This document shows, one piece after another, positions 1 through 60,787 of a stretch of 64,000 nucleotides of DNA. Both the position numbers and the translations under genes were made by a program. Each line of letters opens with the position of its first letter. The stretch's first letter is position 1. The stretch spans positions 62,001-126,000 of the forward strand of contig CALUQN010000004.1 in NCBI GenBank assembly GCA_944322945.1, in the 5' to 3' direction. The notes below the pieces were generated by a model, which saw nothing but the letters and a program-made list of their open reading frames with translations, made no database searches and was not told where the DNA came from. The stretch is from Candidatus Gastranaerophilales bacterium. Its GTDB lineage: Bacteria > Cyanobacteriota > Vampirovibrionia > Gastranaerophilales > Gastranaerophilaceae.

Positions 1-210
1 CAACTTGCAAAAGTTGAAAGCCTGCGTGATAAAGACAGCTTCTCAGATTTAATCAGAGGCTTGTACCTTTACGGTGCAAAAACAGTTCAGCCAAAGGCTC
101 TGGCTAAAATGGTCGTAGAAGCTCCGGAATCTTCTATTCCGGAAATTGATTCAGATTCAGACTCTGATAATGATACAGATACTGATGCTGATTCAGACAA
201 TGATGTGTAA
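1..210 (+). CDS. Probable phage major capsid protein, C-terminal end (partial)
   Basis: The frame is open from base 1 to a TAA at 208-210, giving 69 residues of a protein that starts outside the window. The segment around YLYGAKTVQPKALAKMVV resembles the C-terminal strand of phage coat proteins (a 'YGaKvvrPeAL' pattern). It is followed by an Asp/Ser-rich acidic tail of about 25 residues. The position ahead of scaffold-like, holin-like and adaptor genes fits a coat protein. The assignment rests on a short stretch plus context, so it is tentative. Confidence 0.5.
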   Translation, partial: QLAKVESLRDKDSFSDLIRGLYLYGAKTVQPKALAKMVVEAPESSIPEIDSDSDSDNDTDTDADSDNDV

Positions 211-240
211 TTAAGTATTTTTCACTTTCTTAACCCCTAA

Positions 241-278
241 GGTGTCCGCGGATTTCTTTATATCTGCGGATGCCTTTA
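241..278 (+). terminator. Hairpin after the coat-like gene
   Basis: GGTGTCCGCGGAT (241-253) pairs, with a few G-U or mismatched positions, with ATCTGCGGATGCC (262-274), followed by TTTATA. The T tract is short, so it may attenuate rather than fully stop transcription between the coat-like gene and the next gene. Confidence 0.5.
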
Positions 279-299
279 TAAAAAACAGAAAGGATATAA

Positions 300-572
300 A
301 TGTTTTCAAAATTTAAAGAAACGGTGAAGGAATTAGCCTACACAGCAGTTCTGAGGGCGGAAAAGGCGCTGGGAAGCAAAACCGGTCAGTTAAAAAAAGA
401 AATGGCACTGAATTATATAATTAAAAATCTTCCCCTGCCGTCTATTCTCAAACCGCTAATCGTAAAGCTTTTATCAGGTTTTATAGATGACGCGATAGAA
501 TTTGCCGTGGACTATATGAAAAGGCACAATTGTGAAGAACCGCAGACAGGAGAAATAAAAGATGAACTATAA
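300..572 (+). CDS. Small helical phage protein, holin-associated-domain-like
   Basis: A 90-residue protein starting at an ATG preceded by AAAGGA. The central part (AEKALGSKTGQLKKEMALNY, then IDDAIEFAVDYM) resembles the soluble C-terminal half of LL-H-type phage holins, in which an 'AEk..tG..K' segment is followed by a helix ending in 'IE.AV'. Unlike those holins it has no clear N-terminal membrane segment, so a lysis role is uncertain. It overlaps the next gene by 11 bases, which suggests coupled translation within the phage transcript. Alternative: a virion-associated structural protein. Confidence 0.45.
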   Translation: MFSKFKETVKELAYTAVLRAEKALGSKTGQLKKEMALNYIIKNLPLPSILKPLIVKLLSGFIDDAIEFAVDYMKRHNCEEPQTGEIKDEL

Positions 573-1161
573 CAACAAACAAGAAATTTCATCAACCGCC
601 GAAAATCAAAATCCTATGTTGGAACAAGAGATTAAAGCATACTTAAAACAAAAATTGGAAAATCAAAACATTTCAAATCCGCAGCAGGAAATGCTGAGAA
701 AAATGTTACTAAACAATGAGCAAGGGAATTCTTTGTTGAAAACATACGTAAACAATGTGTGTGACGCCATTATAAAAAATAATGCAAAAAGACAGGCAGC
801 TCCGGCAGAAGATTTGAAAAAGTTTTTTGATATGGACGGCAGAAATGAAGTAATGGCATATCTTAACAATTCCAATATGGATTTTGACAGTGATGAAATC
901 CAAAAAATATCAGCTATAGTGGAAAAGATAGAAAATTCAGCTATAGACAGATATTTGAAGCAAAAAGCCCGCGAAAAAACATTGCAGGAAGAGAACGAAT
1001 ATGCAAAGCAAAGGTTAAAATCCAATGCGCAGAATTCGGGGTACAATTCTCCCGGCAATAAAATTTTTACCCGCGAGCAAATCGGCAAGATGAGTAGTGC
1101 GGAATTTGCCAAAAATGAAAAATTAATCATGGAGCAGCTGCGCCAGGGGTTAATCCAATAA
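562..1161 (+). CDS. Phage protein of unknown function, scaffold-like
   Basis: A 199-residue, highly charged, helix-rich protein with no Cys-rich or membrane segments. The start is supported by AGGAGA at 548-553. The last 33 residues (from KIFTREQIGKM to the end) form a short basic-acidic helical motif resembling C-terminal ends of phage assembly proteins located next to coat genes. A scaffold or virion-packaged role is an inference from composition and its position between a coat-like gene and the tail adaptor. A perfect terminator follows at 1173-1208. Confidence 0.45.
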   Translation: MNYNNKQEISSTAENQNPMLEQEIKAYLKQKLENQNISNPQQEMLRKMLLNNEQGNSLLKTYVNNVCDAIIKNNAKRQAAPAEDLKKFFDMDGRNEVMAYLNNSNMDFDSDEIQKISAIVEKIENSAIDRYLKQKAREKTLQEENEYAKQRLKSNAQNSGYNSPGNKIFTREQIGKMSSAEFAKNEKLIMEQLRQGLIQ

Positions 1162-1172
1162 GCATATTCCAT

Positions 1173-1208
1173 AAACCGACGGGATACTTGAATATCCCGC
1201 CGGTTTTT
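1173..1208 (+). terminator. Rho-independent terminator
   Basis: AAACCGACGGGATA (1173-1186) pairs with TATCCCGCCGGTTT (1193-1206), with one mismatch and a six-base loop, and ends in a T run. It sits just after the scaffold-like gene and directly before the ribosome-binding site of the adaptor gene. Confidence 0.8.
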
Positions 1209-1224
1209 AAAAAGGAGATAACTG

Positions 1225-1863
1225 ATGAACTATTTTGAAATAATAAACAAATGCCTTGTTGAATTAGGATACAAGCAGGTGGGCGCGTTTGCTGAACTCA
1301 CCAAAAATGATCACAAAAAATTGAAAAATATAGTAAACATAATAAATAATACAATTTGCCGCAATGACAACTGGTATTTCCTTATGCGCAAAACGACATT
1401 GCCGTTAAAAGCCGGTGAAACAGAACTGAAAAACACCATTAACGGCAGAATAATAAAGCTTGTAATAGACAATCAGGAATACAATTACCTGATAAATTAC
1501 GAGGACTATGTTTCAAAACGTATTCCGGAAAAAAGTTTCACAGTCTGTGGTGATAAACTTGTATTCCCTGAATTTGATGCGGATAAGAGCATAGAAATAA
1601 CTTATTATACAAAAAATACTACAGTATCGTCAGACGGTACGGAAAAAGCATCTCTCGAGACTGAAACGGATGTTTCACTTATTCCGGATCCGTATGCGGA
1701 ACCACTGCTTGTATATGGAGCATGCCTCAGATTAAAAGCCAATCCCCAGCATGTAAAATTCAGCTACTGGTATGGCATGTATAAAGATGCGCTTGCAGAT
1801 ATGAAATCACAGATTTCAATATCAGCAAAAGAAATGCCATATATAAAGATGCACCGCAGATAA
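1225..1863 (+). CDS. Phage head-tail adaptor-like protein
   Basis: A 212-residue protein; the ATG has a strong AAAGGAG site at 1211-1217. The layout matches podoviral adaptor proteins (P22 gp4/SU10 adaptor type): an N-terminal helical segment, a beta-rich middle (residues about 50-135), then a C-terminal helix pair with the pattern LIPDPYAEPLLVYGACLRLK followed by a conserved-looking Y/W-rich helix. Such proteins form the ring between the portal and the tail nozzle. The family assignment is from pattern memory, not alignment. The gene ends a block; 360 bases without genes follow. Confidence 0.55.
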   Translation: MNYFEIINKCLVELGYKQVGAFAELTKNDHKKLKNIVNIINNTICRNDNWYFLMRKTTLPLKAGETELKNTINGRIIKLVIDNQEYNYLINYEDYVSKRIPEKSFTVCGDKLVFPEFDADKSIEITYYTKNTTVSSDGTEKASLETETDVSLIPDPYAEPLLVYGACLRLKANPQHVKFSYWYGMYKDALADMKSQISISAKEMPYIKMHRR

Positions 1864-2222
1864 TCCTGAAGCTAAGTCCCTGATTGCGGTAGTGCATGCT
1901 TGCCCAACTGGAAATTCTTAAAAGTAACAGCAGGTCAGGCTTAATTGAGTAAATAGTGAGTAGTGAATAGCAACTAAGTGATTAGTCTTAGCGCTTACGC
2001 GCAGCTGTTACTGTAGGTCAGGCACTGCCTGACAGTAATTTACTTAAAAGGCATGGCGATTCGAATACTTGCCCAACGCGCCACCACGTGAAAATTCGGG
2101 CAAAAAAAACAGGAAGTTTTCATTCCCCCCTGTTAAGATTTACACTAGCCGAAATATAAATAGCATGTTTATTATAACTTTTTTTTGAAAAAAAAGCAAA
2201 TTTTGATAAGAAATGTAAAAAT
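1864..2222. other. Gene-free region with host-type palindromic repeats
   Basis: This gap inside the phage module carries copies of repeats found elsewhere in the window. One is AGCGCTTACGCGCAGCTGTTA next to a GTCAGGCACTGCCTGAC palindrome (about 1989-2036), matching 43339-43384. The others are two fragments containing TTGCCCAAC (about 1900 and 2070). An AACAGG...CCTGTT hairpin lies near 2110-2136. The presence of host-type repeats suggests the phage module has resided here long enough to be invaded, or that recombination joined two blocks at this point. A promoter for the small-terminase block probably lies at 2140-2210, but no clear consensus was seen. Confidence 0.55.
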
Positions 2223-2666
2223 ATGTCAAACAAAATGAAACAATTAACCTCCCAGCAAAAGCTGTTTGTAGCCGAATATATCAAGACTCTTGACGGCGAA
2301 GATGCGGCTAAAAAAGCCGGATATAAATCAAAAGATATTAAAGAGACCGCAAACCGGCTCCTTGCTGAAAATCATATAGTAAAAGAAATAAAAAACCAGA
2401 TAAATAGCCAGATTTCATCACTACGTGTTCATAAAGGCTATGTTATCCAAAAACTTCTACAGATAGCGGAATTTTCGCTGACGGAAGAAGATATCACAGA
2501 CAAAGACGGCAACTACACCGGCAAAAAGAAACTCCGTGACACAGGTGCCGGTCTCAGAGCGCTTGAGAGTTTGTGCAAGTACCTCGGTATAACTTCAGAC
2601 GAAGGTGAAGCTTACAAACCTGCCAAAATAATTACTATCTCAAACCTTGATGATGAAAAAATCTGA
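2223..2666 (+). CDS. Phage terminase small subunit
   Basis: A 147-residue protein with the Terminase_2 pattern at residues 6-50: LTSQQKLFVAEYIKTLDGED, AAKKAGYKSK, then a leucine/valine-rich segment ending in IVKEIKNQI. Small terminases bind the pac/cos DNA site and present DNA to the large subunit. The C-terminal half carries the usual charged linker and a short segment probably used for oligomerisation. It opens the second phage block, followed by a hypothetical gene, an acetyltransferase and the portal. The ribosome-binding site is weak. Confidence 0.85.
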   Translation: MSNKMKQLTSQQKLFVAEYIKTLDGEDAAKKAGYKSKDIKETANRLLAENHIVKEIKNQINSQISSLRVHKGYVIQKLLQIAEFSLTEEDITDKDGNYTGKKKLRDTGAGLRALESLCKYLGITSDEGEAYKPAKIITISNLDDEKI

Positions 2667-2689
2667 ACCAAAAGAAAGGACTAAAAAAC

Positions 2690-3049
2690 ATGAAAAACAA
2701 AAAAGATTTGGAAGCCATCCTGATAAATAAAACAACTATGGATGACTTGATAAATATGAAAATAGAAAATGAGTTTATGCGCGAAATGTCAGATGCCGGA
2801 CGACAAAAAAAGAAAAAAGTCATTACTGACATAAAACAGGTGCCCAAAGGTCTTCTGTTCAGCAAGAATGCCGTATTCAGACTTTTTAACCGTAATACAA
2901 AGACCGAAACAACAATAAACGGATTGCAGGCTGAGGGCATGCTCGGACTGCAAAATTCTGTCCGTGAAAAACTTTTGAAAGGTGAAACCGGAACCTTTGC
3001 AACTGAAGATGCTTATATAAGATTTGAAAAACTATGTTTAATTTCTTAA
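2690..3049 (+). CDS. Phage protein of unknown function
   Basis: A 119-residue basic protein with good start context (AAAGAAAGGA upstream of the ATG). The C-terminal half (RLFNRNTKTETTINGLQAEG, then a TFATEDAYIRFEKL segment) looks like a compact alpha/beta domain; I do not recognise a family. Its 3' end overlaps the acetyltransferase gene by 16 bases, so the two are probably translationally coupled. The position between small terminase and portal suggests a packaging or head-assembly accessory, but nothing in the sequence proves it. Confidence 0.6.
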   Translation: MKNKKDLEAILINKTTMDDLINMKIENEFMREMSDAGRQKKKKVITDIKQVPKGLLFSKNAVFRLFNRNTKTETTINGLQAEGMLGLQNSVREKLLKGETGTFATEDAYIRFEKLCLIS

Positions 3050-3591
3050 CAATTACTCTCGATAAAACCCGTGAGGTAAATCATGTCAGAACTTTACCTC
3101 CTTTTTGTCATTTACCCCGCCTTTTCTTTTTATACAAAAGGTATGAAAAATATCTGCACGACGATTACACGGAAAAAATGAATTTTAAACAATTCATAAC
3201 ACTTGCAGTCAATAACAGATTTTTCTGGTTAATAACGGAAAAATTGAGCGGTAAACCCGCAGGATTTGTATATTTGGATAACATAACCGGAAATGATACG
3301 AGTCTTTACAGTGCGGAGATAACAACCTGTTTTGAAAAATCTTACTGGGGTGAAAAAACTCATATCTGTGCAATGGAATTTTTCGAACTTATATTTAAAA
3401 AATTCGGGTTTTACAAGATACGAGCACAAATTTACCCGCAGAATTTCAGAGTCAAAACCCTTCTGCAAAAATGCGGATTTATAAAAGAATGTACCCTGAA
3501 AAATGAAACCATGCTCAACGGCAAACTTCAGGACATAGAACTGTATGCACTATTCAACAAAAAGAAATGCGAGGAACTTAATGAAAATTGA
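3034..3591 (+). CDS. GNAT-family N-acetyltransferase within the phage module
   Basis: A 185-residue protein with a GNAT layout: a central strand AGFVYLDNI (about residues 72-80), an ITTCFEKSYWGEKTH segment with the G-containing acetyl-CoA loop region, and a C-terminal FYKIRAQIYPQNFRVKTLLQ-KCGF motif (about residues 129-152), typical of the RimJ/RimL-like 'N..S..l.eK.GF' end. The acyl acceptor is unknown. Acetyltransferases occur as accessory genes in phages and can modify host or virion proteins. The gene overlaps both neighbours (16 and 11 bases), so it is expressed with the structural genes rather than as a separate cargo gene. Confidence 0.7.
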   Translation: MFNFLTITLDKTREVNHVRTLPPFCHLPRLFFLYKRYEKYLHDDYTEKMNFKQFITLAVNNRFFWLITEKLSGKPAGFVYLDNITGNDTSLYSAEITTCFEKSYWGEKTHICAMEFFELIFKKFGFYKIRAQIYPQNFRVKTLLQKCGFIKECTLKNETMLNGKLQDIELYALFNKKKCEELNEN

Positions 3592-5248
3592 AACAGATGA
3601 TTTAACAGTACAGATAAACGATACCGAAGAAAAATTTTTAGCAAACTGTATTATCAAGAAATATGACACACTGGAAAACGAGCGGTTACCGCAGATAAGC
3701 GACATCAAACTTATCAGAAATTCCATCTATAATCAGACAATCCCCAAAATTAACGCCTGGGAAAGTACGATTGAACTGCCTGATATATATGAGCTGGCGC
3801 AGACTTTAAAATCACATCTTGCGCAAAATTTGTATTCTCATCCGGACGCCATGTTTGATGTAACTGGCACGTCGCCGGAAACACAGGAATTTGCAAATAA
3901 ACAAAAAGCAATGCTGGTTAATACCTTTGAGCAGATGAAGTTTGAAGACGAAATGGAAAAAATAATTGACAGCGTAGTTGAAACCGGAGAGTGCACGCTT
4001 TTTGTAGGCTGGGAGACCCGTATAAAACAGGTAAGACGTCAGCTGACACCGGAAGAACAGCTATTTAATCCCGATAATAAAAGTTTTGTGGTTGAAGAAA
4101 AATTAATCTATGACAATGCAAAAATTAAACACATAAAATCGGAGGACTTTGTATTTGAAAAGTGTTCAACTTCAGACTGGGACAACTGTGCCAAAATTTA
4201 CAGGACATATTCGTCACTGGAGGAGATTGTCGGAGACAAAGCAAACAATATGCTGACGGAAGAAAAACTGGAAACACTGAAAGGAGTGATGGCGAAGAAC
4301 AAAAAAGAAACTACCAAAGCCGTCGAAGAAAACAAGCTGGAAATTTTGGAATACTGGGGCGACATAGAACTCTCGGACGGAACTGTCTTAAAGAATAAAT
4401 TGGCAGTAATTGCAGGACGTCAGGAGCTTATCAGGTTTGAATCAAACCCGTTTGTAATCAATCCGTTTATCCATGCGAATATAATCGAAAATCCGACGAC
4501 AGGACGGGGAATTTCACCGCTTAGGGTGGCACTTATTCTGAACAATCTCGCATCTACAATTTTGAACAAGCAGATAGATGCGCTTGCTTTGATGATGAAT
4601 CCGCCGTACTTGGCGCCGAAAGGCTGTTTCAGAGGTCAGCAGGATGTTCAGCCGGGTAAAATTATTGAATATGATGCTGCCTTGATGCCAAACCAGCCGA
4701 TACCGTTGAGCTTTGACAAAGCAATGCAGGGCTGGGATTTCCTTAATTATTTCAAAGCCACAATTGAAAGTGCTACAGGAATTTTCAAGAATATGGCAGG
4801 CAATATCCAAACTCAGGAGAGAACTGCTACAGAACTTAATTATTCCGCCAACGGTCAGGAGGCACGGCTTAACCTTATTATTGAATCTATAAACCGCAAA
4901 ATTCTGATACCAACCATAGAAAAAACTGCAGAAATCATCTCAAATTTCAAACTTGGTGAAGAAACCATAACGCTAAATAATCATGGTAAAACGGAATTTA
5001 TTAACATAGATGACAATATACGAAACGCCAATTATATATACCGTTACGGCGACAGAAAGGCGAATTTTGAACGAAAATCAAAACTGAAGGAACTGTTTGA
5101 AATAGTAAGTTCATTTGCGCAGGTAGACGTTGTCGCACAAAGAATAGACTGGATAGAGTGTTTCAAATTTGCCCTTGAACAGTACGGCGTTGAAAATTCC
5201 AATAATTTTCTGCTTGAAAACCCGCAGGGTAATAATCCAAATGCTTGA
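3581..5248 (+). CDS. Phage portal protein
   Basis: A 555-residue protein. The ATG at 3581 is chosen over an upstream in-frame ATG at 3545 because it has GAGGAA at the right distance and gives a short 11-base overlap with the previous gene. Size, the N-terminal segment with several tryptophans and prolines, a middle region (about residues 290-330) with INPFIHANIIENPTTGRGIS and a LNNLASTILNKQIDAL helix, and a C-terminal wing/helical part fit podovirus-type head-tail connector (portal) proteins. The portal forms the 12-subunit ring through which DNA is packaged. No frameshift or truncation is visible. Confidence 0.75.
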   Translation: MKIETDDLTVQINDTEEKFLANCIIKKYDTLENERLPQISDIKLIRNSIYNQTIPKINAWESTIELPDIYELAQTLKSHLAQNLYSHPDAMFDVTGTSPETQEFANKQKAMLVNTFEQMKFEDEMEKIIDSVVETGECTLFVGWETRIKQVRRQLTPEEQLFNPDNKSFVVEEKLIYDNAKIKHIKSEDFVFEKCSTSDWDNCAKIYRTYSSLEEIVGDKANNMLTEEKLETLKGVMAKNKKETTKAVEENKLEILEYWGDIELSDGTVLKNKLAVIAGRQELIRFESNPFVINPFIHANIIENPTTGRGISPLRVALILNNLASTILNKQIDALALMMNPPYLAPKGCFRGQQDVQPGKIIEYDAALMPNQPIPLSFDKAMQGWDFLNYFKATIESATGIFKNMAGNIQTQERTATELNYSANGQEARLNLIIESINRKILIPTIEKTAEIISNFKLGEETITLNNHGKTEFINIDDNIRNANYIYRYGDRKANFERKSKLKELFEIVSSFAQVDVVAQRIDWIECFKFALEQYGVENSNNFLLENPQGNNPNA

Positions 5249-5285
5249 TGGCAGCACGCAAAAAACTATGATAATATAAAACAAT

Positions 5286-5789
5286 ATGAGATGGCAGAGC
5301 AAAATCCTGTTTTTAATGTTATTTTTCCCGATGCTGCTTGTCGGGATACTGTTTTCGTATCTTAGCATGAATGAGCTTGCGGAAACTGAAAAAGCGCAGT
5401 CGCAAGCTGCAGCACAAAAAGCTGAAGACGAAGATGAAGAACTGAATAATCCTATGCTTTGGCCGGAAGAACGCAAGCGGCTACGAGAAAAACGCCGGCT
5501 TGAACGCGAGGCACAGATGGCGGAACAACTTGGACAAACGCAGCTGGAAGAAAATACTGCCGCTGCCGATAGTGCCGATGATTATATTGATAATTCACAA
5601 CCGGAAGAAGACGTGACTGACAGCGGATATGAAGATGAAAACAGCAGTGAAGAACCCTATGAAGAAGACTCTTCACAAGCTGAATTTGATAATGATACCC
5701 CGGAACAATCACACCAAAATGAATATGCTCCGCCAGCCAAATATCCGGAACAGACTCTGGAAGAGATACCTATAGAAGAATTTCAATAG
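5286..5789 (+). CDS. Acidic phage protein of unknown function, possible membrane anchor
   Basis: Up to 167 residues. From the first ATG the protein starts with a strongly hydrophobic segment (residues about 7-27), followed by a very acidic, Glu/Asp/Gln/Pro-rich tail with a short basic coiled-coil stretch (ERKRLREKRRLEREAQ). No convincing ribosome-binding site precedes 5286. A second in-frame ATG at 5367 would remove the hydrophobic part, leaving an acidic scaffold-like protein. A different frame in the same first 80 bases encodes a short phage-like peptide (5290-5364, see findings). The start is therefore uncertain; I do not recognise a family. Confidence 0.5.
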   Translation: MRWQSKILFLMLFFPMLLVGILFSYLSMNELAETEKAQSQAAAQKAEDEDEELNNPMLWPEERKRLREKRRLEREAQMAEQLGQTQLEENTAAADSADDYIDNSQPEEDVTDSGYEDENSSEEPYEEDSSQAEFDNDTPEQSHQNEYAPPAKYPEQTLEEIPIEEFQ

Positions 5790-5810
5790 AGAATAAGATT
5801 ATAAAATTGA

Positions 5811-5842
5811 AATAACCACCTTGGTTCAAGGTGGTTATTTTC
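5811..5842 (+). terminator. Rho-independent terminator between acidic gene and large terminase
   Basis: A perfect 13-bp stem, AATAACCACCTTG (5811-5823) with CAAGGTGGTTATT (5827-5839), three-base loop GTT and a following T run. It stands 25 bases before the large-terminase start, so the terminase may have lower or separate expression. Confidence 0.85.
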
Positions 5843-5866
5843 TTGTACACAAGGAAAATAGCAACA

Positions 5867-7156
5867 ATGGAATATAAACTACTAAAGGCACAGCGTGAAT
5901 TTTTAGAGATACCGCATAACTATACTCTGGATGTTGCAGTATATCAGGGCGGTTACGGGTCCGGCAAGACTTTTGCAGGTTCCTTGCTCGGAATATTATT
6001 ATGTATGAAATTCCCGGGGATACGCGGGCTTGTGGGGGCGCAGACTTATACACTCGTGCGGGATACCACCCTTCAAACATATCTTGAACATCTTGATAAC
6101 ATGGGCTTTCAGGAAGGAATTGATTACGAATGGTCGTCCACTTTGCAAAAACTGGTATTCAGAAACACTTCGGAAGTTCTTTTCAGGCACTTTGACGAAC
6201 CAAATAAACTGAAATCTCTAAATCTTGGTTTTGCAGAGATTGAGGAGATGTCCGACATCCCGTATGAAACTTTCAAAATGCTTCTTGGCAGAATGCGCCA
6301 GCAGCCTAAAAAAGAATGGCAAAATTTTACCTACAGAATATTCGGGCACACAAACCCCGAGACACAAAAAGGCTGGGTCTATAAAACTTTTGCGGAAAAT
6401 CCCGCCCCGAATTACCGCCTGATAACTGCGCCGACAACCCAGAATATTTACCTGCCGAAAGGTTTTTGCGATGAATTGAAAAAGATTTACGACGAGCAAT
6501 ATTATAATATATTTGTCCTTGCACAAAACGGCGAATACAACAAAGGGCTTGTAATAAAAGATTTTACGGAAGAAAATATACGGGAAATAAATTACCAGAA
6601 CGATTTGGACTTACACATCAGCTGTGATTTTAACGTTGATCCGATGTGCTGGGTTCTGGCACACAAGACGGACGAAAAAGTCTTCTACTTCGATGAAATT
6701 GTGCTGGAAAATACAACGACCGCAAAAGCTTGTGAAGAATTCTGCCGGCGCTATCCCGCTCATAAAGGTGCAATAATCGTCAATGGCGACGCCTCCGGAG
6801 ATAACAGAAGCTGCACAAGTGAATACACAAATTACGTAATAATTAAAAAGAAACTCCAACAATACGGCTACGACGCCGATATAAAAATAAAAGCCTTCAA
6901 TCCGCCTATAAAAAACAGAATAGCAGCCTTCAATGCCAAAATAAGGAACGCTGAAGGGGAAATCTGTCTTTATGTGGATAAAAAATGCGAAAAGCTCCTC
7001 TACAATATTTATAATCTTAAATATAAAGAAGGCTCATCACGCATAGATATCCCCGCTTACACCCAGATAAAACAAAATAAGGAGCTGAAATTTTTGTCAC
7101 ATCCTATAGATGCGGCGTCATATCTGGTTGATTTTTATTGGCCGATAACCCTTTAA
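5867..7156 (+). CDS. Phage terminase large subunit (ATPase-nuclease)
   Basis: A 429-residue packaging motor. The ATG at 5867, with AAGGAA at 5851-5856, is preferred to the upstream ATG at 5831, which lies inside the terminator hairpin. Walker A is GGYGSGKT (residues 28-35) and a Walker B-type segment GFAEIEEM falls near residues 121-128. The C-terminal nuclease domain begins around HISCDFNVDPMCWVL (about residue 245), whose Asp is the expected first metal ligand, with a later NGDASGDNRS segment. It cuts concatemeric DNA and pumps it through the portal. The small terminase and portal lie upstream, an unusual position for this gene. Confidence 0.9.
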   Translation: MEYKLLKAQREFLEIPHNYTLDVAVYQGGYGSGKTFAGSLLGILLCMKFPGIRGLVGAQTYTLVRDTTLQTYLEHLDNMGFQEGIDYEWSSTLQKLVFRNTSEVLFRHFDEPNKLKSLNLGFAEIEEMSDIPYETFKMLLGRMRQQPKKEWQNFTYRIFGHTNPETQKGWVYKTFAENPAPNYRLITAPTTQNIYLPKGFCDELKKIYDEQYYNIFVLAQNGEYNKGLVIKDFTEENIREINYQNDLDLHISCDFNVDPMCWVLAHKTDEKVFYFDEIVLENTTTAKACEEFCRRYPAHKGAIIVNGDASGDNRSCTSEYTNYVIIKKKLQQYGYDADIKIKAFNPPIKNRIAAFNAKIRNAEGEICLYVDKKCEKLLYNIYNLKYKEGSSRIDIPAYTQIKQNKELKFLSHPIDAASYLVDFYWPITL

Positions 7157-7173
7157 TAAAGAACGGAGAAACA

Positions 7174-7416
7174 ATGGAAAATATACTAATGCACTATTCA
7201 CCCATCTTAATTGCGATAATGATATTTTTAATCCAGCAGCGAATAGTGGTTACCCCTGAGCAGCTGGAGAAAAAACATCGCGAAATTCTTGAAGATGCGG
7301 AAGAAAAATTTGTCACAATACACAGTTTTAATGACTTAAAGGAACAATTTTCCGATATGAAGGAAAAAATAGATAAAATTTACGACTGCGTGATGACCAA
7401 CAACATAATAAATTAA
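7174..7416 (+). CDS. Small phage membrane/coiled-coil protein
   Basis: An 80-residue protein starting at the ATG with a GGAG site at about 7164. One hydrophobic segment (residues 6-20, SPILIAIMIFLIQQ) is followed by a charged coiled-coil (residues 30-70). This architecture is common in small phage proteins encoded near the terminase or lysis genes (holin/antiholin or membrane-attached tail accessory). The exact role cannot be told from sequence. It is the last gene of the phage-like block. Confidence 0.6.
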   Translation: MENILMHYSPILIAIMIFLIQQRIVVTPEQLEKKHREILEDAEEKFVTIHSFNDLKEQFSDMKEKIDKIYDCVMTNNIIN

Positions 7417-7451
7417 ATGTAAATATTTGTTACAAAAAGGGCGAATATTTT

Positions 7452-7479
7452 TAAAGTTTTAGGTAAAAAATGCCGATAA
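7452..7479 (+). promoter_or_regulatory. Sigma-28 (FliA/SigD)-type promoter
   Basis: TAAAGTTT (7452-7459), a 12-base spacer, then GCCGATAA (7472-7479). Both 8-mers match the flagellar sigma-28 consensus exactly; the spacing is one base longer than the E. coli form and within the range seen for Bacillus SigD. It lies 57 bases upstream of the ATG at 7536, with an AAAGG ribosome-binding site at about 7518. A second site with the same spacing is at 60760-60787. Confidence 0.75.
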
Positions 7480-7535: not shown

Positions 7536-9143
7536 ATGGGACTGGCAGCATCACAAGCAAGATTTTTAGCCATCACAGCTCGTAAAGCGAACTGCGAACT
7601 GCAATCCATGCAAATAGCGCAGGACAAGCTTTCTATTACAAACGAGTTGACAGAAGCCACAGAGGATTACCAAAGTGCCTTAAATGCCACAAAATTAATT
7701 TGGGATTCAGACGGAACAGGCGAATACACCTATAACGTATCCTACAATCTTTTGATGACTCCGTCAGCAGCCAATATGTATGATCCGTATCTGGTAACAG
7801 ATGCCTCAGGCAGAATTGCCCTTACAACCGCTATGGCAAATGCGGCGGCAGCTGCCGGCATTGATCCTAAAGGCGGTACACAACAGTCAGAAGCCGGCAG
7901 ACAAGGTTTTATTAACGCGTTAGTCAACGCAGGCGTTATAACCGGTTCAACAGGAAATACCGTATTGGATAATGCTTATTCAGAATCCGCAGGTGTCGGC
8001 GGTATACCGCTTGACAAAACAACCGCTTATGCAGTTTCTAATGAAACACTTGCAAATATTTTGTCTGATGACGCATATAACCTTGGGTTGCCTGATTACA
8101 GTGTTTCAATTGACCCGGAAAAAGACAATTATGGTATCGTAATAAATACATCTACATCACCTACAAGAGGCGAGGCGTTTGAAAATTTAACAATTGGTGA
8201 CTTGTTAAATAACAACTATGTTTTAACATACGGCGGTAATGATAACGAAAACGTAGCGCCCGGAAGTACAGGATTTTCTGAATTTATGCAGCAGGTAATC
8301 GGTACCGGCGATTACGAGTCAAATACCGGCTCTATATTCGGTAAGATAGCTCATACATTAACAGATTTACTTGGTATATCAGAACCTAACTTACAGGCAT
8401 TAGAATACGCTTATAACAAAATTATGATGTCTTACACTGAAGAACTCGCATACGATGCAGGTAAACCGGGTTCAACACCGGATGCTCGCAAAAGTGCGGT
8501 TAACAGTGCAAACAGATATAATACAGTTTGTTACACGCGTGATGACAACTTGAATAAAAAACAAAACGCGTATATTGCAGTTAACCTTTCAAACCTTGTA
8601 AGTTCATTCTTGACATATTATGCACAACAGGTTACATCAAGTGATTATTCAGCAGGTCGTCTGGATGAAAACTGCTACTATGTAACAGATGATATGACAT
8701 ATATGTATGAACTAGCGAACGCAAATGCGGTAACTGAAAAAGATTTGTTAATCACAGATTTTTATAACTCGTTATATAACAACATCTGTGCAAACGGATG
8801 GACAGCAGCTTATGGTGATTATCTTGAAGATGATAATTTCCTCCAAAATGCCTTGAAAAACGGTCAATTGTTCATATCTGTACTTGCGACAGACGGATAT
8901 TATTATCAGGAAGTTTACAACGACAACGGATACCTTGTTGAAATTACTGATGATGACGCGATTGCACAGGCAGAACTTGAATTTGAAATCATCAAGAGCA
9001 AGCTCAATGCTAAAGAAGAAAAACTTGATATTGATATGAAGAATGTTGATATGGAAATTTCTTCACTCACAACAGAATACGATACGGTCAAGAACCTTAT
9101 TTCTAAAAATATTGAAAAAGTATTCACAATGTTCCAATCATAA
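7536..9143 (+). CDS. MGLAASQAR-type protein, possibly flagellum-associated
   Basis: A 535-residue protein. The N-terminus (MGLAASQARFLAITARKANC followed by ELQSMQIAQDKLSITNELTE) is a helical segment resembling an uncharacterised family in gut bacteria that I recall only by its 'MGxAASQARxLxxTxRK' start; similar helices occur at ends of flagellar rod/hook-filament axial proteins. The middle is rich in Ala, Asn, Thr, Tyr and Gly (extracellular-looking), and the last 65 residues form a coiled coil ending in IEKVFTMFQS. Paired terminal helices around a surface domain are what axial or secreted structural proteins look like. Transcription from a sigma-28 promoter and a following terminator make it a single-gene unit. 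No signal peptide is seen. The function is inferred only. Confidence 0.6.
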   Translation: MGLAASQARFLAITARKANCELQSMQIAQDKLSITNELTEATEDYQSALNATKLIWDSDGTGEYTYNVSYNLLMTPSAANMYDPYLVTDASGRIALTTAMANAAAAAGIDPKGGTQQSEAGRQGFINALVNAGVITGSTGNTVLDNAYSESAGVGGIPLDKTTAYAVSNETLANILSDDAYNLGLPDYSVSIDPEKDNYGIVINTSTSPTRGEAFENLTIGDLLNNNYVLTYGGNDNENVAPGSTGFSEFMQQVIGTGDYESNTGSIFGKIAHTLTDLLGISEPNLQALEYAYNKIMMSYTEELAYDAGKPGSTPDARKSAVNSANRYNTVCYTRDDNLNKKQNAYIAVNLSNLVSSFLTYYAQQVTSSDYSAGRLDENCYYVTDDMTYMYELANANAVTEKDLLITDFYNSLYNNICANGWTAAYGDYLEDDNFLQNALKNGQLFISVLATDGYYYQEVYNDNGYLVEITDDDAIAQAELEFEIIKSKLNAKEEKLDIDMKNVDMEISSLTTEYDTVKNLISKNIEKVFTMFQS

Positions 9144-9183
9144 CAAAAAACATATAGACCGGTGTGTAAAGCACTGATAACGC

Positions 9184-9215
9184 GGCAGGCAGTCAATTTG
9201 ACTAACCTGCCTTTT
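9184..9215 (+). terminator. Rho-independent terminator
   Basis: GGCAGG-c-AGTCAA (9184-9196) pairs with TTGACT-aa-CCTGCC (9198-9211), ending in TTTT. It closes the sigma-28-controlled gene 41 bases after its stop and separates it from spmA. Confidence 0.8.
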
Positions 9216-9232
9216 AGTGTTTAAATAGCGGT

Positions 9233-60068: not shown

Positions 60069-60719
60069 TTATTTAGGTATCGGCATATCAGCCGGATACA
60101 GTCTCAGTTTACTGTCGTAAATTCCTGCACTATCCGAGTCGCCGCCGCCCGGGATGTAATTGTGTCTTCTTATAGCACCGTCCTGCAGGTTATATCTTTC
60201 TTTGATTTCACCGTAAGTTTCAGTGCCGAAAAGTCCTTCATCTTCCGTGCGGTACTCGTAGTACCCGCCGGTTTTGATTAGTCCGAAAAGGGCTGTATCT
60301 TCCGGTACCCAGGCTAGTCTGCCGGATTTTAAATCTTTGTTCATATAATGTTGGGCAACTTCTACAGGGTCTGTCAAACCTTTTTGTTCAACTTCCTGCT
60401 GCTCAGCTTTCATTCTCGCATTGTGTTTGCGTTGTGCAATTAATTCATCACTCGCTGTGCCGCGCGGGATAATTAAATCCTGACCTATCATGATGTCTTT
60501 GAGGCTGGTATTGTTTGCAGCCATAATGTCTTCAACTGTTGTGTCATATTTTACGGCAAGTTCCGACAGTGTCATTCCTTCCGTAACTTTAATTGTAACA
60601 TTATTACCGTTACCATTTGTAAAATTAATAGTAATTTGACCATCTTCACTTTGCGGGACAACTGTTGTTCTCTGGGGGTCGCCGCCAATTGAGCCTACGC
60701 CTTGTACACCTTTTACCAT
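60069..60719 (-). CDS. LysM-domain protein
   Basis: 216 residues with AAGGAG upstream of the ATG. A LysM domain spans about residues 41-86 (VTIKVTEGMTLSELAVKYDT ... VEDIMAANNTSLKDIMIGQD, LIIPRG). The C-terminal part (about 118-216) is polar, with Tyr/Gly-rich YYEYRTEDEGLFGTETYGEI. It has no signal peptide or membrane helix. LysM binds peptidoglycan or chitin, so export would have to be non-classical, for instance through the flagellar apparatus. A sigma-28-type promoter lies upstream. Confidence 0.78.
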   Translation of the reverse strand: MVKGVQGVGSIGGDPQRTTVVPQSEDGQITINFTNGNGNNVTIKVTEGMTLSELAVKYDTTVEDIMAANNTSLKDIMIGQDLIIPRGTASDELIAQRKHNARMKAEQQEVEQKGLTDPVEVAQHYMNKDLKSGRLAWVPEDTALFGLIKTGGYYEYRTEDEGLFGTETYGEIKERYNLQDGAIRRHNYIPGGGDSDSAGIYDSKLRLYPADMPIPK

Positions 60720-60759: not shown

Positions 60760-60787
60760 TATACGGCACAATCTGTGAAAAACTTTA
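60760..60787 (-). promoter_or_regulatory. Second sigma-28-type promoter, upstream of LysM gene
   Basis: On the minus strand, TAAAGTTT (60787-60780), a 12-base spacer, then GCCGTATA (60767-60760). The first 8-mer and spacing equal those at 7452-7479; the -10 has six of eight consensus positions. The LysM ATG is 41 bases downstream. Confidence 0.6.

What the first reader, a model, noticed from the sequence alone, without database searches (positions are those of the whole stretch)
7452..7479. Near-perfect flagellar sigma-28 promoter drives an undescribed 535-residue protein
Both 8-mers of the sigma-28 consensus (TAAAGTTT and GCCGATAA) are exact, 12 bases apart, 57 bases from the gene start, and the gene ends in its own terminator. 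Two exact octamers at almost the right spacing are very unlikely by chance. The protein has terminal helices and a Asn/Thr/Ala-rich middle, like secreted axial proteins. It may be a flagellar or surface component of this lineage that has not been described.
Basis: partly seen in the sequence, partly recalled or inferred. Interest (0 to 1): 0.75.

Follow-up and report, generated by a model that had tools for sequence, protein, structure and literature searches.

The report
Sigma-28-driven secreted-looking protein family
In gut relatives of cyanobacteria that have no flagellum filament, a flagellum-type genetic switch and a flagellum-like export machine appear to have been kept to make and probably secrete a large, previously undescribed family of proteins, of which this gene is one member.

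Summary
The promoter is real: exact TAAAGTTT-N12-GCCGATAA at 7452-7479, 56 bases before a 535-aa gene. It is a lineage-wide rule. The own genome (2.1 Mb, Gastranaerophilales-like) holds 12-14 paralogues with conserved helical ends (MG[ML]AASQAR...; ...LDTEhxxLqTEYDsvKxxI.KNiEksF) and variable middles. Of 13 with an upstream region, 11 carry the same promoter, as do 70 of 80 homologues (24 of 326 other genes). A second conserved element, the dyad TGTWA-N6-8-TWACA, lies about 34 bp before the -35. A FliA-type sigma factor is encoded; flagellin and hook were not found. What remains is a flagellum-like export set (FliE/F/H, FlhA, FliN-O-P-Q-R, FlgB/C/F). Its FlhA belongs to a second clade, distinct from the flagellar FlhA of flagellated relatives. 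The family occurs in 211 of 289 class genomes, always with an FlhA-type match, and 125 of these lack flagellin. Some family genes sit beside fliN-OPQR or fliI. AlphaFold gives long N- and C-terminal helices around a folded middle; no detectable homology to flagellin or any known family. Most likely these are sigma-28-controlled substrates, perhaps surface-appendage subunits, of a flagellum-derived secretion machine. Export itself is inferred.

The parts
7418..7434 (+). dyad TGTAA-N7-TTACA, 34 bp upstream of the -35; candidate activator site
   Evidence: TGTWA-N6-8-TWACA present upstream of 75/94 family genes vs 24/327 other genes, mostly 34 bp before TAAAGTTT
7452..7459 (+). sigma-28 -35 octamer TAAAGTTT, exact
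   Evidence: conserved in homologues
7472..7479 (+). sigma-28 -10 octamer GCCGATAA, exact, spacer N12
   Evidence: GCCGATAA or GCCGTMAA in homologues
7536..9143 (+). 535-aa family protein (including stop codon)
   Evidence: ORF; family
7539..7682 (+). conserved N-terminal helix (residues 2-49), motif MGLAASQARFLAITARK
   Evidence: AlphaFold; N-terminal alignment A2; conservation
8952..9137 (+). conserved C-terminal helix (residues 473-534)
   Evidence: AlphaFold; C-terminal alignment A3; conservation
9179..9221 (+). hairpin with TTTT tail, likely intrinsic terminator
   Evidence: z -3.4; not listed by the strict pattern
60760..60787 (-). second sigma-28-like site in the window, TAAAGTTT-N12-GCCGTATA
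60069..60719 (-). 216-aa LysM-like protein (MVKGVQGVG...), starting 40 bp downstream of the second site; probable member of the same regulon
   Evidence: LysM recognised by eye only

Best explanation
The gene encodes one member of a lineage-specific family of axial-type proteins: long N- and C-terminal helices with a variable folded middle and no Sec signal or membrane segment. FliA (sigma-28), probably helped by a regulator binding the upstream dyad, transcribes the family. In flagellin-less members such as this genome, the products most likely leave the cell through a retained flagellum-like type III export machine (FlhA-II clade, FliE/F/H, FliN-O-P-Q-R, FlgB/C/F rod). They are then displayed at the surface, perhaps as subunits of a non-flagellar appendage. 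Shown: the promoter, the family, its conservation, the sigma factor, the export genes, the absence of detectable flagellin, the FlhA-II clade. Inferred: transcription by FliA, the dyad's function, export, surface location, polymerisation.
For: Promoter in 11/13 own paralogues and at >=12/16 in 70/80 homologues vs 24/326 other genes; FliA present. Family in 211/289 class genomes, every one with an FHIPEP match, and absent from all 54 FHIPEP-negative genomes; 125 of them without flagellin. Own FlhA is in a 100/100-supported clade with the second FlhA of flagellated relatives (83% identity) rather than their flagellar FlhA (37%). Export genes. Family gene beside fliN-OPQR in 6 loci (fliN alone in 3 truncated ones) and near fliI in 2. 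A sigma-28 site also precedes small genes beside the own fliOPQR cluster. Terminal helices in two subfamilies; ends conserved, middle variable.
Against: No homology to any known exported axial protein. The protein has 4 Cys, unlike typical flagellins. Two deep families (f7, f9) have FlhA-II-clade genes but no detected family member, and f6/f11/f12 have the family with a flagellar FlhA; their second FHIPEP match was not identified, so the pairing with system II is not strict. FlhB and FliI were not looked for in the own genome. FliA was looked for only in the own genome. Co-occurrence is confounded by phylogeny.
Confidence: 0.58

Rival explanations
1. The family members are individually secreted adhesins or effectors of the flagellum-like export machine that do not polymerise; the helical ends are export and chaperone-docking signals.
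For: 12-14 divergent paralogues per genome, 338-865 aa, with very different middles, one with GLUG motifs, look like a repertoire rather than one filament subunit.
Against: Both ends are conserved together, which an N-terminal export signal alone does not require; no effector domain was recognised.
Confidence: 0.25
2. The gene is part of the phage-like module directly upstream (portal, terminase, 80-aa gene), for example a surface or attachment protein of a domesticated particle.
For: TerL and the 80-aa gene lie directly or closely upstream of window-type homologues in more than 30 loci; the IMG/VR contigs that carry the family carry the same module.
Against: The other own paralogues carry the same ends and promoter away from it; the gene has its own promoter; no PHROGs hit and no match in 50,697 phage records; the module is far more conserved (TerL 77-94%) than this gene (34-72%).
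Confidence: 0.07
3. The proteins are cytoplasmic or cell-structure proteins that use FliA for timing; the flagellum-like genes are decaying leftovers.
For: No export was shown; [quoted passage not shown]
Against: The subset's FlhA is not the flagellar orthologue but a second clade, 83-99% identical among the f1 copies compared, and FHIPEP is present in all 188 family-f1 genomes, which does not look like decay; gene adjacency.
Confidence: 0.1

Closest known systems
Flagellin / FlgK / FlgL axial proteins
   Same: sigma-28-type promoter as in classical late flagellar genes; conserved helical ends, variable middle; no Sec signal
   Different: no sequence or fold similarity detected; sampled flagellins of relatives mostly lack this promoter; genome without flagellin
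Filament-less flagellar basal bodies of Buchnera (PMC8109811)
   Same: flagellar basal-body and export genes kept (abstract); absence of a filament is general knowledge, not read in the paper
   Different: here the FlhA is a separate clade from the flagellar one, and a large sigma-28-linked protein family accompanies it
Myxococcales early-diverging non-flagellar type III system (Abby and Rocha, PMC3459982)
   Same: flagellum-derived export set lacking parts essential for motility, once read as a relic
   Different: components here score nearer the flagellar than the injectisome models, mostly below both curated cut-offs; rod genes FlgB/C/F and FliA kept
Partial flagellar gene sets of Gastranaerophilales (Soo 2014, PMC4040986; Soo 2015, PMC4451040)
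   Same: same lineage and the same observation of incomplete sets
   Different: those papers infer loss of flagella; the FlhA tree here indicates a second paralogous system instead

Membership tests
sigma-28 (FliA) regulon | TAAAGTTT-N11/12-GCCGATAA close upstream of the gene | tested here: met
   exact; conserved in homologues
sigma-28 (FliA) regulon | FliA-type sigma factor in the genome | tested here: met
   235 bits vs cut-off 189.6
sigma-28 (FliA) regulon | transcription start at the site, FliA-dependent | not testable with these tools
   needs RNA 5' end mapping or a fliA deletion
Flagellin family | Flagellin_N (PF00669) or detectable profile homology | tested here: not met
   own genome no match; hhalign probability 0.1%, positive control 96.9%
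Flagellin family | helical N and C termini flanking a variable domain | tested here: met
   helices 2-49 and 473-534; 2-49 and 515-576 in L176
Flagellin family | fold match to solved filament, hook or junction proteins | tested here: not met
   filament hits only at E 3.9-5.4 with TM at most 0.17
Functional flagellum | flagellin and hook genes in the genome | tested here: not met
Flagellar/non-flagellar type III export apparatus | FlhA, FliP, FliQ, FliR, FliH, MS-ring | tested here: met
   FlhA, FliF, FliH and FliR below the flagellar equivalog cut-offs, FliP above
Flagellar/non-flagellar type III export apparatus | FlhB and FliI in the own genome | not tested
Phage structural proteins | match to PHROGs or phage records | tested here: not met

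The most novel reading that the evidence does not exclude
Much of the class Vampirovibrionia carries a second, flagellum-derived type III secretion machine (FlhA-II clade). In its gut order, members without flagellin use it, under FliA and a second regulator, to build a new kind of surface appendage from a dozen variable family proteins; gene sets recorded as remnants of a lost flagellum are in fact this working machine.
Probability: 0.4. Interest if true: 0.88.

Novelty: new variant of a known kind. Interest (0 to 1): 0.72.

Why it matters
It would turn the supposedly decayed flagellar genes of a widespread animal-gut lineage into an intact secretion machine with its own regulator and a large substrate family, give a naturally filament-less flagellar-type system for studying how flagellum and injectisome are related, and point to the main surface proteins of bacteria that have hardly been studied in culture.

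Tried and rejected
(1) Chance promoter: rejected. (2) Flagellin, rod or FliE homology: hhalign, Foldseek, Pfam, NCBIfam and PDB sequence search negative. (3) Phage gene: rejected as the main reading. (4) Loose pattern counts (3 mismatches) are uninformative: equal to the reversed control. (7) First attempt to read genes downstream of minus-strand sites used the wrong orientation and was redone.

Full report
Observation. The site is exact: TAAAGTTT at 7452-7459, GCCGATAA at 7472-7479, spacer 12. No shuffled window matched. The gene runs 7536-9143, 535 aa, and is followed by a stable hairpin with a T tail. There is no signal peptide or membrane segment by hydropathy.

It is a family. The own genome has 14 matches to the N-terminal profile; two lie on identical sequence at both ends of one contig and others are cut by contig ends, so about 12-14 genes. 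They share the N-terminus (MG[ML]AASQARLLSITxR...) and C-terminus (...LDTEHNALQTEYDSVKxVIDKNIEKSFxxF) and differ in the middle. No Pfam, NCBIfam or PHROGs family describes them; one member has GLUG motifs.

The promoter goes with the family. Eleven of 13 own upstream regions carry a site of at least 12 of 16, 32-56 bp from the ATG (the two exceptions are L018 and L031). Of 80 homologues from other genomes 70 reach 12 of 16, against 24 of 326 other genes in the same loci. A dyad TGTWA-N6-8-TWACA, usually 34 bp upstream of the -35, occurs in 75 of 94 family upstream regions against 24 of 327. Genome-wide, 13 N12 sites have at most one mismatch against 0.5 expected. Other intergenic sites precede genes for a LysM-like protein in this window (60069-60719, minus strand), MVKG/MVDG-type proteins, and several 50-100-aa proteins; one pair of the latter lies next to the own fliOPQR cluster. 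Of 14 flagellin genes sampled from flagellated relatives, only one or two have a similar site, so in this lineage the promoter seems to mark this family rather than flagellin. Flagellins further down an operon, or with long leaders, could have been missed.

Machinery. FliA/WhiG: C2:27012-27674. FlhA with FliE, FliF, a FliG-position protein without a FliG domain, and FliH on C21. FliN-like, FliO, FliP, FliQ, FliR at C1:110.6-114.5 kb. FlgC, FlgB and FlgF/G-like near fliA. No flagellin and no hook-type protein beyond those. FlhA, FliF, FliH and FliI of this system score below both the flagellar and the injectisome equivalog cut-offs (FliI from a relative), while the flagellar FlhA of a relative passes its cut-off.

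Two FlhA clades. In a 21-sequence tree the own FlhA groups, with 100/100 support, with the second FlhA of flagellated relatives (83% identical) and with FlhA of families f7 and f9, apart from the flagellar FlhA of the same genomes (the tool warns of long branches within the tree).

Distribution. Family: 211 of 289 class genomes, including all 188 of the own taxonomic family. Flagellin: 95 genomes, of which 86 also have the family. FHIPEP: 235 genomes, covering all 211. Thus 125 genomes have the family without flagellin, and none has it without an FHIPEP match; two of the 211 (G088, G196) show only weak, partial FHIPEP matches. These overlaps were counted by hand from the listed rows.

Neighbourhood and structure. 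Family genes are divergently adjacent to fliN-O-P-Q-R in L165, L166, L170, L176, L178 and L184, to fliN in three truncated loci, and near fliI in L112 and L116. The adjacency is largely one orthologous arrangement. AlphaFold models of two subfamilies (pLDDT 85.8 and 75.5) have an N-terminal helix 2-49 and a 62-residue C-terminal helix.

Conclusion. Shown: a conserved, sigma-28-type promoter on a new multigene family in genomes that keep a distinct flagellum-like export machine and often no flagellin. Inferred: FliA-dependent transcription, export by that machine, surface display. The alternatives of non-polymerising secreted proteins, a cytoplasmic role, or a phage-module component remain open in that order.

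Noticed in passing
window 1-7413 and L033 8985-12001 (just upstream): Compact phage-like module: amidase-like, coat-like (by eye), holin-like, tail, TerS, portal, TerL, 80-aa gene. TerL is 77-94% and portal 67-91% identical and in the same place in more than 30 loci of many MAGs, which looks like a vertically inherited, domesticated element, perhaps gene-transfer-agent-like; IMG/VR lists pieces of it as viruses.
   Followed up: partly
L051 9043-10515 (own C1, minus strand): 491-aa protein whose C-terminal part matches the FlhA cytoplasmic domain without the membrane part. FHIPEP counts in related genomes suggest it is widespread; possibly a soluble docking platform.
   Followed up: no
L049 10769-11803 (own C21): FliG-position protein without a detectable FliG domain; weak MgtE_N or FliG_M similarity here and in a relative.
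   Followed up: no
L049, L050, L051, L017, L043 (own genome): Many unrelated proteins begin with a short motif like M..I....N..F(G/K) (for example MINKISGISFKTYYPQ, MKVGAINSYSASFGNKK); a possible shared N-terminal signal of this lineage. Seen by eye in ORF lists.
   Followed up: no
L055, L061, L066, L075, L078 (own genome): Sigma-28-like sites precede very small genes (51-69 aa) with good ribosome sites; candidates for chaperones or anti-sigma factors.
   Followed up: no
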